A DNA stretch of 64,000 nucleotides from Betaproteobacteria bacterium (GTDB taxonomy: Bacteria; Pseudomonadota; Gammaproteobacteria; Burkholderiales; SG8-41), in the NCBI GenBank assembly GCA_029863175.1, contig JAOTVX010000015.1:1-64000 (forward strand), in the 5' to 3' direction. The notes under the pieces were generated by a model, which was not told the DNA's origin, did not search any database, and saw only the letters and a list, made by a program, of their open reading frames with translations. This document shows, one piece after another, positions 53,021-55,559 of this stretch; within the stretch, counting starts at the first letter, position 1; each line of letters begins with the position of its first letter. The position numbers were made by a program, and so were the translations under genes.

Positions 53021-53338
53021 TTAGGCGTCGTAGATGCGCCTTAGGGCCACCTGCATGTCTACGACCGGCCGCCATCCGAAGTCGCGGGTCGTCGCCTCGA
53101 TCTTGGGAACCCGATGCTGCATGTCCTGGTAGCCGGTGCCATTCAGGCGCGGCGTTATCCAGTTTCCCGTGGCAGCCATTTCGCGGGCGATCTCCGCGTA
53201 ACGCCCTTCGTCGGGACGAACAAGTTTGCGGTAGTCGAGATTGCTGAACCAGACGGCTCCCACCAACAGAATCAGAATGATTGGCCAGCTCGACTTCGGT
53301 TGGGGCGCCTCTTCCACGATCGCGACACGGTCCGTCAA
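53021..53338 (-). pseudogene. in-frame fusion relic: ArnT N-terminus joined to ArnA C-terminus
   Basis: A 105-codon frame. Residues ~1-67 (with NLDYRKLVRPDEGRYAEIAR and a hydrophobic segment at 19-31) are the start of the Ara4N transferase ArnT; residues ~69-105 (GYQDMQHRVPKIEATTRDFG and the following helix) are the C-terminal end of the decarboxylase domain of ArnA. The joint is after TPRLNG. Each parent gene is several hundred codons, so ~500 residues of ArnT and ~600 of ArnA are missing. The TTG start overlaps the mnmH stop by two bases, so it may still be translated as a small membrane peptide. Confidence 0.8.
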
Positions 53339-54408
53339 TGCCGAGTTCCAGGCCGAGGACCTTCTGCCTGCATCGCTTGCCGAGCAAGATCCTGGAAATG
53401 CGCTTCGCTGACCTGGTTGATCTCAAATTTCCTGGCGCGTGGCAGTGCCGGGTAGTGGCTGGTGATCGCGCGCGTGTAGGCCGGATCGTAATGGCTGACC
53501 AGGAGATCGGCAGTGAACTCGTCCCAGCGACGCGCCAGTGCCAGCTCGCGCCAACGGTCGATCACGGCGTGCCCGTGCAAGGCGGTAAGGGCTTCAAGCT
53601 TCGCGATGAGGTTTTCCGGTTGCTCGAGGAAATGCGCGTACTCCTCCTTGAGCAATGCAACTCGCACCGGCAAGGGCGCTTCGATCACCACGCACTCGCT
53701 TTCCCACATGCGCGCGACCAGCGCCTCGGGCACGCGCAGGTTTCCGACCTTCTTGCTCTCGGCCTCAATGTAAACGGGGTGCCTGGCGTCGAATCCGTGG
53801 AGTGTGCTCCAGATGCGGCTCTCGAAGAGTTTCTGCGGTGGTTGAGCTTCCTCGGGGAGGCTGCCCAGCACGGACCCGCGATGGGCAGCGAAGGCCTCCA
53901 GATCGAGCACCTGACAGCCCGCATCACGCAGCGCGCGCAGCAGGCGGCTCTTGCCGGTACCCGTGAGGCCGCATACGACGCGCCAGCCGAACTTGCGCGG
54001 CAGGGTTTCAAGTTCGCTCACCACGGCGCGGCGATAGGCTTTGTAGCCCCCATCGAGACGGCCGACGGGCCAGCCGACCTGGGCAAGCACGTGCGCAAAG
54101 GCGCCGCTGCGCTCACCGCCGCGCCAGCAATAGAGCAAGGGATGCCACTCGCGCGGGCGGTCGAGAAAACGCGCCTGAATGTGGCGTGAAATGTTCGCGC
54201 TGACGAGCGCCGCGCCGATCTTCTTGGCGTCGAAGGGGGAGACCTGCTTGTAGAGCGTGCCGACGCGGGCGCGCTCGGCGTCATCGAGGACCGGGCAGTT
54301 CACCGCGCCCGGAATGTGGTCTACCGCGAACTCGGACTCGGAGCGAACGTCGATCAACTCGTCAAATTCGGGCAATTGTGCTACGGTAACGATCGCTGGT
54401 CCACGCAC
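53335..54408 (-). CDS. mnmH: tRNA 2-selenouridine synthase
   Basis: A 357-residue enzyme (SelU/YbbB) that replaces sulfur by selenium in wobble 2-thiouridine of tRNAs, using selenophosphate. The N-terminal rhodanese domain (~8-125) has the catalytic Cys in LLYCWRGGERS near residue 93, and the second domain has a P-loop GLTGTGKSRLL near 147. The length matches the family. It is divergent from selD, which supplies selenophosphate; the 92 bases between the starts must hold both promoters. Confidence 0.95.
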   Translation of the reverse strand: MRGPAIVTVAQLPEFDELIDVRSESEFAVDHIPGAVNCPVLDDAERARVGTLYKQVSPFDAKKIGAALVSANISRHIQARFLDRPREWHPLLYCWRGGERSGAFAHVLAQVGWPVGRLDGGYKAYRRAVVSELETLPRKFGWRVVCGLTGTGKSRLLRALRDAGCQVLDLEAFAAHRGSVLGSLPEEAQPPQKLFESRIWSTLHGFDARHPVYIEAESKKVGNLRVPEALVARMWESECVVIEAPLPVRVALLKEEYAHFLEQPENLIAKLEALTALHGHAVIDRWRELALARRWDEFTADLLVSHYDPAYTRAITSHYPALPRARKFEINQVSEAHFQDLARQAMQAEGPRPGTRH

Positions 54409-54500
54409 GGTATTTCCTGTTGCATCGCGCTTTTTCGGTACGCTTGGTGGCTCGGTGGTTCACTTTGCGTGCGTCAACGTCGAATTAAAGGTAAATCTCC

Positions 54501-55559
54501 ATGAACAAGCCTTCTGACGTCGCACCCGTCCGCCTGACGCAACTGTCGCATGGCGGCGGGTGAGGGTGCAAGCTCACGCCAGCGTTGCTGAGCGAGGTCC
54601 TGGCAGGAACGCCGGTCGGCAAGGTTTATCCGAACCTGCTCGTCGGCAACGAGTCGAGCGACGACGCGGCTGTGTATCGCCTGAACGATACGCAGGCAGT
54701 GGTCGCGACCACCGATTTCTTCATGCCGATCGTGGACGATCCCTACGATTTCGGCAGCATTGCCGCCACCAATGCGATCTCCGACATCTACGCGATGGGC
54801 GGCAAGCCCTTTCTCGCGCTGGCATTGCTCGGTGTCCCGGTCGGCAAGCTTCCCGTGGAGGCGGTGCAGCGCATCATCTCGGGCGGTCACGATGTCTGTG
54901 CCCGGGTGGGTGTGCCGATCGCGGGCGGGCATTCGATCGATTCGCCCGAGCCCATGTACGGGCTGGTCGTGCTCGGTCTGGTGCATCCGGACCAGGTCAA
55001 GCGCAACGACCGGGCCCAGGCTGACGACGTGCTGATACTCGGCAAGGGGCTTGGCATCGGCATTCTCAGCGCCGCGCTCAAGAAGGGCGAGCTCAAGGAC
55101 AAGGCCTACCAGCAGATGCGCGAATCGGCGACCCAGCTCAACACGCCCGGTCCCGATCTGTCCACGATGGAAGGCGTGCATGCCCTGACTGATATCACGG
55201 GCTTCGGGCTGCTCGGCCACCTGCTCGAAATCTGCCGCGGCTCTAAGCTTGAAGCACGCCTGGATCTCGAGGCCGTGCCATTGCTGTCGGCGGCTCGGCA
55301 TCTCGCGGAGGCGGGTTACAGCACTGGCGCGGCTGATCGCAACTGGTCGAGCTATGGCGGATCGGTCGAGCTGCCGGCGGGCGCGCCAGCCTGGCACCGG
55401 AACATCCTCGCCGATCCCCAAACCAGCGGCGGGCTCCTGGTCGCCTGCGACCCCGCGAGCGCGCCGGCGGTGCTGGAAATCTTCCGCAAGCAGGGATTCA
55501 GCCACGCGAGCCAAATCGGGACGCTGGCCGCGGGCGCGGCGCGGGTCATCGTCACCTAG
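54501..55559 (+). CDS. selD: selenide, water dikinase, selenocysteine-containing
   Basis: A 352-residue enzyme making selenophosphate from selenide and ATP. From ATG 54501 the frame reads VRLTQLSHGGG, then TGA (54561-54563), then GCKLTPALL. In Cys-type SelD this position is Cys (motif GCGCK), so the TGA stands exactly for Sec: G-U-G-C-K. After it the frame is open to TAG at 55559, with DDAAVYRL, ATTDFFMPIVDDPYDFG, AGGHSIDSPEP and ITGFGLLGHL as in the family. A simple gene finder would start at a later TTG/CTG and miss ~28 residues with the active site. It needs SelA, SelB and tRNA-Sec elsewhere in the genome. Confidence 0.93.
54561..54593 (+). promoter_or_regulatory. candidate SECIS element after the selD UGA
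   Basis: Directly after the UGA, GCUCACG (54572-54578) can pair with CGU (54583-54585) and GAGC (54590-54593) around loop CCAG, with an unpaired UGCU on the 3' side. The loop is ~19-22 nt after the UGA, the distance used by SelB. An alternative pairing of UGAG with CUCA, including the UGA itself, exists. The fold was done by eye. Confidence 0.5.

What the first reader, a model, noticed from the sequence alone, without database searches (positions are those of the whole stretch)
54501..54593. selD is itself a selenoprotein gene, hidden by an in-frame TGA
The frame from ATG 54501 is open except for one TGA at codon 21, which falls exactly on the catalytic residue (Cys in Cys-type SelD, motif G-C/U-G-C-K). 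Both sides are well conserved, so a chance stop or sequencing error is unlikely. Any routine annotation would start the gene after the active site. It predicts that the organism decodes UGA as Sec and has at least one selenoprotein, with mnmH using the same selenophosphate pool next door.
Basis: partly seen in the sequence, partly recalled or inferred. Interest (0 to 1): 0.8.

Follow-up and report, generated by a model that had tools for sequence, protein, structure and literature searches.

The report
Selenium-containing SelD, a real selenoprotein gene
The gene for the enzyme that activates selenium carries an internal UGA that is almost certainly read as selenocysteine, a known trick that here is shared by a whole family of little-known bacteria.

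Summary
ATG 54501 to TAG 55559 encodes a 352-residue SelD, broken only by TGA at 54561-54563, on the catalytic residue (SHGGG-U-GCK). The window's genome is not held, so the Sec machinery was tested in relatives. In a GTDB family of 74 held genomes that includes the nearest relative, 70 genomes have an orthologous selD covering codon 21, each with one TGA (position checked in 46). The nearest (82% identical, same gene order) has selA, selB and tRNA-Sec; SelB is found in 66 of 74 and tRNA-Sec in 67 of 74. Just after the UGA lies the strongest synonymous-codon conservation of the gene in Sec-SelDs, absent from Cys-SelDs; it can form a hairpin with a GUU loop that meets the published bacterial SECIS rules. 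Sec insertion itself is inferred.

Sec-SelD is a known selenoprotein, so this is a new member of a known kind. Beyond the finding: 59 of 74 genomes show no formate dehydrogenase alpha hit, and 65 of 74 carry a second selenoprotein candidate, apparently uncatalogued: glutaredoxin fused to a DinB-type domain (UxxC), often in the selA-selB cluster, with a CGAAAGA-GUU-UCUUUCG hairpin after its UGA.

The parts
54501..55559 (+). selD, selenide water dikinase (selenophosphate synthetase), 352 residues with Sec (inferred) at residue 21
   Evidence: NF002098 510 bits, TIGR00476 424 bits
54561..54563 (+). in-frame TGA at the catalytic Cys/Sec codon (codon 21)
   Evidence: among 156 SelD sequences mapped codon by codon, window and some duplicates included, TGA in 62 and TGC/TGT in 94
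54577..54594 (+). candidate bacterial SECIS hairpin: 7 pairs, one bulged A, GUU apical loop at 54584-54586, 20 nt after the UGA
   Evidence: -7.5 kcal/mol, z -2.45, 3 of 200 shuffles as good; 6 or 7 of 7 pairs possible in 58 of 62 Sec and 6 of 94 Cys sequences; codon conservation
54585..55559 (+). 324-aa ORF from TTG that a routine call gives; lacks the active site
   Evidence: close to the length of most nearest database entries listed
54487..54491 (+). AAAGG, Shine-Dalgarno-like, 9 nt before ATG 54501
   Evidence: read from the sequence
53335..54408 (-). mnmH (selU/ybbB), tRNA 2-selenouridine synthase, divergent from selD; also uses selenophosphate
   Evidence: NF008752 485 bits; divergent in 53 of 53 Sec-SelD loci with mnmH in the flank
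54409..54500 (.). 92-bp intergenic region between the divergent mnmH and selD
   Evidence: coordinates

Best explanation
This is selD encoding a selenocysteine-type selenophosphate synthetase. SelB bound to Sec-tRNA(Sec) reads UGA 54561-54563 as Sec with the help of the hairpin at 54577-54594; Sec-21 is the selenium-handling residue of the enzyme; its product selenophosphate feeds both Sec-tRNA synthesis (hence its own synthesis) and MnmH next door. Shown by sequence: the open frame, the position of the TGA, the RNA-level constraint, the family-wide TGA, the machinery in relatives. Inferred: that this very genome has SelA, SelB and tRNA-Sec, that Sec is inserted, and the enzyme activity.
For: (1) Single in-frame TGA on the catalytic codon of a SelD otherwise intact on both sides. 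(2) In the GTDB family of G110 (74 genomes), 70 genomes have a SelD ortholog (65-82% identical) covering codon 21, 71 genes in all, and each shows exactly one TGA; the other 4 are one 3' fragment and three without a selD-grade hit. The TGA is at codon 21 in the 46 of these 70 genomes whose locus was fetched. (3) SelB in 66 of 74, tRNA-Sec in 67 of 74, at least one of the two in 71 of 74. In a sample of 300 genomes of the order, 21 TGA-selD genomes were listed (list cut off): tRNA-Sec in 21 of 21, SelB in 20 of 21. Of 20 Cys-SelD genomes (high-ranking hits of the same list), 7 have both; with G246 it is 8 of 21. (4) Nearest held genome G363: SelD 82%, mnmH 84%, tesA 76%, lolD 90%, same order; selA, selB and tRNA-Sec on contig C114. 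(5) In 60 Sec-SelDs the 7-codon window with the highest synonymous-codon conservation is codons 25-31 (0.95, scored on its five codons whose amino acid is at least 80% conserved; rest of gene 0.65, s.d. 0.14). Over codons 27-33 it is 0.88 in Sec-SelDs and 0.54 in 45 Cys-SelDs. (6) The hairpin meets the bSECIS rules quoted in PMC13188914: loop 3-9 nt, stem 4-16 bp, G in the first two loop positions, 16-37 nt spacing, -7.5 kcal/mol or lower.
Against: The window's own genome is not held, so selA, selB and selC are untested there; none was found in the window. With more flank, the region is no more stable than shuffles (z about 0), and the window's 42-nt minimum-energy fold is another structure. 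Covariation is weak: 3 cells changed on both sides, 2 of 7 pairs never vary; RNAalifold keeps only the upper 4 pairs. One TGA-selD locus outside the family (L047, genome G003) lies in a MAG with neither SelB nor tRNA-Sec; 3 of 74 family genomes also show neither (G352, G356, G365). Two family genomes (G351, G367) hold, besides the TGA selD, a distant unbroken Cys-type SelD domain (32-34% identical).
Confidence: 0.95

Rival explanations
1. Sequencing or assembly error in a Cys codon (TGC/TGT read as TGA).
For: The Cys form is common in the relatives first compared (75 of 79).
Against: The orthologous selD has one TGA in all 70 family genomes that cover the codon (position checked in 46), and the hairpin sequence that accompanies TGA and not TGC/TGT is intact in the window.
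Confidence: 0.01
2. Pseudogene, or a true stop with re-initiation at TTG 54585 giving a shortened SelD.
For: Mechanical ORF calls give the 324-aa form, as do most database entries listed.
Against: Such a product lacks the catalytic residue; residues upstream of the TGA are conserved (His17 and Gly18-20 in 60 of 60 Sec-SelDs); one stop in 352 codons; no Shine-Dalgarno-like site suitably placed before TTG 54585 (read).
Confidence: 0.02
3. UGA read as another amino acid (Trp in a recoded genome, or suppression) rather than Sec.
For: A frame open under another code is not itself evidence for Sec.
Against: TGA occurs once in this frame, at the catalytic position; its counterpart elsewhere is Cys; the neighbours mnmH and the FtsX-like permease are full length under table 11; relatives hold tRNA-Sec and SelB.
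Confidence: 0.01
4. In this genome SelD is the only selenoprotein and the Sec machinery is kept only for SelD (a self-serving loop that also supplies MnmH), as PMC1794560 proposed for some YbbB species.
For: 59 of 74 family genomes, the closest relative G363 included, show no formate dehydrogenase alpha hit at E <= 1e-70; mnmH is next door.
Against: 65 of 74 family genomes, G363 included, carry a glutaredoxin-DinB gene with one TGA, at its UxxC motif in all 46 distinct genes examined, so SelD is very probably not alone.
Confidence: 0.07

Closest known systems
[quoted passage not shown]
   Same: Same enzyme family, UGA at the same catalytic residue, SECIS-type hairpin after it, SelB and tRNA-Sec in the relatives.
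   Different: Nothing in mechanism. Host lineage: PMC1794560 (passages) described Betaproteobacteria of 2006 as having FdhA beside selABC as their only selenoprotein; here Sec-SelD is family-wide and FdhA mostly not found.
SelD/YbbB (MnmH) selenouridine trait with SelD as single selenoprotein (PMC1794560, passages)
   Same: selD beside mnmH, Sec-SelD without detected FdhA in most relatives; the paper states that all Sec-decoding organisms lacking FdhA have Sec-SelD.
   Different: Most relatives here carry a second selenoprotein candidate, a glutaredoxin-DinB fusion, so SelD is not single.
Sec glutaredoxin (PF00462, UxxC; table of PMC13188914, passages) - for the companion protein in relatives
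   Same: Glutaredoxin domain over the Pfam cut-off, UxxC.
   Different: Carries a C-terminal DinB-type helical domain and reaches no NCBIfam cut-off; 'DinB' does not occur in the review's text.
UXX-star / HUGP-GUXX-star selenoprotein families (NCBIfam NF041114, NF041211, NF041212, NF045501)
   Same: Weak glutaredoxin-like similarity around the Sec motif.
   Different: All far below cut-off (for example 28.6 bits against 66 for P0242).
Oxidoreductase-SelD fusions (NADH-SPS, named in PMC4561486, passages)
   Same: G351 and G367 also hold a Cys-type SelD domain; in G367 it follows an oxidoreductase-like part in an 844-aa ORF.
   Different: A distant paralog (32-34% identical to the window's SelD), not the gene of this finding.

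Membership tests
Sec-containing SelD | SelD family membership over curated cut-off | tested here: met
   NF002098 510 bits (cut-off 299), TIGR00476 424 bits (125)
Sec-containing SelD | In-frame UGA at the catalytic Cys position | tested here: met
   Codon 21, SHGGG-U-GCK
Sec-containing SelD | UGA conserved in relatives | tested here: met
   One TGA in the ortholog of 70 of the 70 family genomes that cover the codon; position checked in 46
Bacterial SECIS (model quoted in PMC13188914) | 3-9 nt loop, 4-16 bp stem, G in first two loop positions, 16-37 nt from UGA, MFE -7.5 or lower | tested here: met
   GUU loop, 7 pairs with a one-base bulge (4 pairs above it), 20 nt, -7.5 kcal/mol for the 18-nt hairpin; borderline on energy, and not the minimum-energy fold of the 42-nt stretch
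Bacterial SECIS | Covariation of paired bases | tested here: inconclusive
   95.0% of cells paired but only 3 cells with both sides changed
Sec-decoding trait (SelA, SelB, tRNA-Sec) | Present in the window's own genome | not testable with these tools
   No whole genome held; none found in the 64-kb window
Sec-decoding trait (SelA, SelB, tRNA-Sec) | Present in closest relatives | tested here: met
   SelB 66 of 74, tRNA-Sec 67 of 74; G363 has selA, selB and tRNA-Sec
Selenoprotein | Sec physically inserted at the UGA | not tested
   Needs 75Se labelling or mass spectrometry
Selenouridine (SelD/MnmH) trait | mnmH present | tested here: met
   53335-54408 minus strand, NF008752 485 bits (cut-off 266)
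Sec glutaredoxin (companion protein of relatives) | Glutaredoxin domain with UxxC | tested here: met
   PF00462 39.9-44.3 bits (cut-off 22.9) in 3 of 3 proteins; TGA at that residue in 46 of 46 distinct genes among the loci fetched by then

The most novel reading that the evidence does not exclude
The selenium trait of this betaproteobacterial lineage rests on a pair that is not in the catalogue: a Sec-type SelD (next to mnmH) and a Sec glutaredoxin-DinB fusion that often lies in the sel cluster (grx-DinB, selA, selB, a thioredoxin-reductase-like flavoprotein, selC). The two co-occur almost perfectly (TGA-form Grx-DinB in 20 of the 21 genomes listed with TGA-selD and in 2 of the other 279 genomes of the order sample), with or without formate dehydrogenase, and both have a hairpin with a G-first loop after the UGA. 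The fusion would be a selenium-dependent thiol transferase or detoxifying enzyme reduced by the clustered flavoprotein. In addition, SelD may have gained Sec from Cys here, an event that PMC1794560 did not find in this family.
Probability: 0.5. Interest if true: 0.6.

Novelty: new member of a known kind. Interest (0 to 1): 0.42.

Why it matters
For annotation: most of the nearest SelD entries listed lack the active site, so selenium use in this lineage is easily under-called. For biology: the case suggests that Sec decoding can be kept without formate dehydrogenase, by SelD together with a glutaredoxin-DinB selenoprotein; that is testable by 75Se labelling and by deleting either gene. The companion gene gives a second, very strongly conserved SECIS-type hairpin with a GUU loop (CGAAAGA-GUU-UCUUUCG), useful for defining what SelB of this lineage recognises.

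Tried and rejected
Tried without gain: the window's own genome (not held); viral contigs (2 pattern matches, none a relative); thermodynamic folding of the longer region alone (z about 0); a first all-against-all scan for other UGA genes, swamped by antisense shadow frames; a first codon-usage scan with too strict a threshold, which missed all controls. The second codon-usage scan does not flag SelD itself in the window and flagged 3 of 9 control loci, so its sensitivity is low; its other flags in the sel neighbourhoods were not followed up. It nevertheless flagged the glutaredoxin-DinB gene in three genomes. Its four window flags (54187 +, 57984 -, 49345 -, 36708 -) were not followed up; the first three lie opposite called genes (mnmH, the FtsX-like permease, and an ORF that I take by eye for dnaB).

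Rejected: sequencing error, pseudogene, re-initiation, other recoding (see rivals). Considered and rejected as sole reading: 'SelD is the only selenoprotein', because. Not settled: direction of the Cys/Sec change. FastTree on 154 rows needs 4 changes; IQ-TREE on 72 chosen rows of 155 needs 2, with the window's 23-row Sec clade at 99/97, a second Sec clade at 100/99 and L047 inside Cys rows at 97/96, but an unresolved backbone. L074 was left out of the second tree and of the codon statistics; L080 was left out of both trees because its motif did not fit the mask; the other rows missing from the 72 were left out to save time.

Dropped rows and limits: L072 does not cover codon 21. The 62 TGA sequences include duplicates (L001 and L100 are one gene); for the codon statistics duplicates and L074 were removed (60 left) and the 45 nearest of 94 Cys sequences were used. 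The genome tables give the kind and number of stops, not the codon position; that was checked only in fetched loci. The list is cut off, so 21 TGA genomes is a lower bound; the codon of genomes below the cut (for example G090) is unknown. The Cys controls are 20 high-ranking hits, not a random draw; G246, searched with them, was kept apart because its hit showed 2 TAA in the table, but residue 21 is Cys and it has SelB, tRNA-Sec and Sec-FdhA. The genomes are MAG-like and their completeness is not given, so absences are weak.

Full report
Observation. The frame from ATG 54501 is open to TAG 55557-55559 except for TGA 54561-54563, codon 21. Read through, it is a 352-residue SelD: NF002098 510 bits, TIGR00476 424 bits, both over cut-off and aligned across the TGA. 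The motif is SHGGG-U-GCK. A mechanical ORF call starts at TTG 54585 and gives 324 aa; most of the 120 nearest proteins listed from the 5.8-billion database have about that length, up to 94% identical apart from the window's own. Of five full-length hits aligned, four have Cys at residue 21 and one, P0021, has Arg. The divergent neighbour 53335-54408 (minus) is mnmH, 485 bits.

Relatives, first set. Codon 21 is TGC in 64, TGT in 11, TGA in 4, not covered in 1. Of 20 of these genomes searched (4 TGA, 16 Cys), tRNA-Sec over 60 bits and SelB over cut-off occur together in 3 of 4 TGA genomes and 5 of 16 Cys genomes. The exception is L047/G003, a groundwater MAG with TGA-selD and neither; it may be incomplete or a counterexample.

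Relatives, second set. In 300 genomes sampled from the order of L001's genome, 21 listed selD hits contain one TGA (list cut off). Their genomes have tRNA-Sec in 21 of 21 and SelB in 20 of 21; of 20 Cys-SelD genomes searched in the same searches have both, or 8 of 21 with G246. In the GTDB family of G110 (74 genomes returned), 70 genomes have a SelD ortholog covering codon 21 (71 genes, 65-82% identical) and each has exactly one TGA; the other 4 are a 3' fragment and three genomes without a selD-grade hit. The table does not give the codon; in the 46 of these 70 genomes whose locus was fetched, the TGA is at codon 21. Two genomes, G351 and G367, hold in addition a distant SelD domain with Cys (motif SRCGGCGAK, 32-34% identical); in G367 it is the C-terminal part of an 844-aa ORF with an oxidoreductase-like first part. 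tRNA-Sec is found in 67 of 74 and SelB in 66 of 74; three genomes show neither (G352, G356, G365, the last only 1.7 Mb). The closest, G363, matches the window's selD at 82% with mnmH, tesA and lolD in the same order (tesA and lolD named by eye); its contig C114 holds selA, selB, a thioredoxin-reductase-like gene and tRNA-Sec.

RNA level. In 60 distinct Sec-SelDs, the 7-codon window with the highest synonymous-codon conservation in the whole gene is codons 25-31, directly after the UGA: 0.95 (on its five codons whose amino acid is conserved in at least 80%), against 0.65 (s.d. 0.14) for the rest. Over codons 27-33 the mean is 0.88 in Sec-SelDs and 0.54 in the 45 nearest Cys-SelDs, whose own background is 0.61. 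The stretch can form a 7-pair hairpin with a GUU (or GGU) loop: 6 or 7 pairs are possible in 58 of 62 Sec and 6 of 94 Cys sequences. The window's 18-nt hairpin has -7.5 kcal/mol, z -2.45. It meets the rules of the bacterial SECIS model quoted in PMC13188914 (passages read), the energy rule just so. Against this: covariation is weak, RNAalifold keeps only the upper 4 pairs, and with longer flanks the window's stretch folds no better than shuffles or into another structure. I read it as a SECIS element on the strength of codon conservation and position, not of energy.

History. With residue 21 masked, the window lies in a clade made of Sec-SelDs only (51 of 154 rows, support 98; 23 of 72 rows, 99/97). 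A second Sec clade and the singletons L047 and L074 lie elsewhere in the first tree; the fewest changes are 4 and 2 in the two trees (L074 was left out of the second). PMC1794560 (passages) reported Sec-to-Cys but no Cys-to-Sec changes in SelD; here, with Cys outgroups, a gain from Cys is the shorter account, but the backbone is unresolved and the direction stays open.

What the machinery is for. PMC1794560 (passages) states that FdhA or SelD was present in every selenoproteome and that Sec-decoding organisms without FdhA have Sec-SelD. Here the Cys-SelD genomes with SelB all have Sec-FdhA (7 of 7, 8 of 8 with G246), while 6 of 21 Sec-SelD genomes do. In the family, FdhA is found in 15 of 74 (14 show the TGA, one is a fragment without it). 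A codon-usage scan of fetched sel clusters then flagged a gene with the motif PGUSSC or PGUTSC in three genomes. It encodes about 250-264 residues with a glutaredoxin domain over the Pfam cut-off in 3 of 3; the C-terminal part matches DinB_2, over cut-off in 1 of 3 (37.2 bits) and below it in two (22.7 and 17.7 against 24.8). AlphaFold gives mean pLDDT 93; Foldseek's best hit is a DinB/YfiT protein (6iz2, E 2.8e-4, TM 0.83 by target), with glutaredoxins and glutathione transferases further down. His134, His218 and His222 are invariant and His133 nearly so in 32 aligned sequences; recalled, not tested: DinB proteins bind metal through histidines.

The gene is found in 66 of 74 family genomes, with one TGA in 65 and a fragment that lacks the residue in one. 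In the 300-genome sample it is found in 28: 22 with TGA, namely 20 of the 21 listed TGA-selD genomes plus G022 and G072, and 6 without a stop, in genomes not listed with TGA-selD. In 46 distinct genes the TGA is at the UxxC motif; after it, codons 23-27 (AAA GAG TTT CTT TCG) are invariant and codon 22 is GCG in 38, another residue's codon in 8. They form CGAAAGA-GUU-UCUUUCG (z -2.86 for one). FdhA of relatives has a stem with a GUC loop at about the same distance. Grx-DinB lies near selA-selB in 27 of 40 stretches fetched around sel genes, some of them short or from the same genome; the order is grx-DinB, selA, selB, in many also a thioredoxin-reductase-like gene, then tRNA-Sec, with further genes between grx-DinB and selA in some. 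Four database entries of the fusion that I opened begin after the UGA (P0304, P0332, P0359, P0290). No paper in the held library has both 'selenoprotein' and 'DinB' as whole words, and the text of the 2026 review has no 'DinB'. The gene was not found in the window, where no sel cluster lies, so its presence in this organism is inferred from kinship.

Conclusion. The finding is right and its mechanism is the known one: SelD as a selenoprotein that makes the selenium donor for its own synthesis and, through MnmH next door, for tRNA selenouridine. It is a new member of a known kind. What may be new lies beside it: a Sec glutaredoxin-DinB selenoprotein as the steady companion of Sec-SelD.

Noticed in passing
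L241:4287-5057 (+), L249:5631-6377 (+), L256:5891-6658 (+), L318:5058-5816 (-) and others: A glutaredoxin-DinB fusion with one TGA in 65 of 74 family genomes, at its UxxC motif in 46 of 46 distinct genes examined, with invariant hairpin codons after it; apparently an uncatalogued selenoprotein.
   Followed up: yes
L089:459-1364 (-); also L131-L136, L142-L145 and most of L278-L302: A thioredoxin-reductase-like flavoprotein gene (TIGR01292 244 bits, below its cut-off of 343) lies between selB and tRNA-Sec in many Sec-SelD genomes; not found in the Cys-SelD selB loci L123-L130 (1.5-kb flanks) nor in the stretches of G032, G002, G291, G080, G124.
   Followed up: partly
L373:2221-4755 (-), genome G367; L372:2018-3022 (-), genome G351: A second, distant Cys-type SelD domain (SRCGGCGAK) beside the TGA selD of these genomes; in G367 fused behind an oxidoreductase-like part.
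   Followed up: partly
P0021 (protein of the database, 352 aa): A full-length SelD with Arg in place of Sec/Cys at residue 21 (HGGGRGCK); TGA to CGA is one base. Error, or a SelD that lost the catalytic residue.
   Followed up: no
L047:4600-4641 (+), genome G003: TGA-selD in a Rhodocyclales groundwater MAG without SelB or tRNA-Sec; in the tree it sits among Cys-SelDs.
   Followed up: partly
G022:C195:431-1201 (L371) and G072:C153:875-1642 (L370): Genomes with a TGA glutaredoxin-DinB gene but no good selD hit in the same sample; incomplete MAGs or a different SelD.
   Followed up: no
L151 and L143 (G120), L137 (G201): G120 shows two SelB genes and two tRNA-Sec genes on different contigs, and G201 two SelB genes: a duplicated Sec system or mixed MAGs.
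   Followed up: no
window 36708 (-): A codon-usage scan flags an in-frame TGA with coding-like sequence on both sides; not examined, may be a shadow frame.
   Followed up: no
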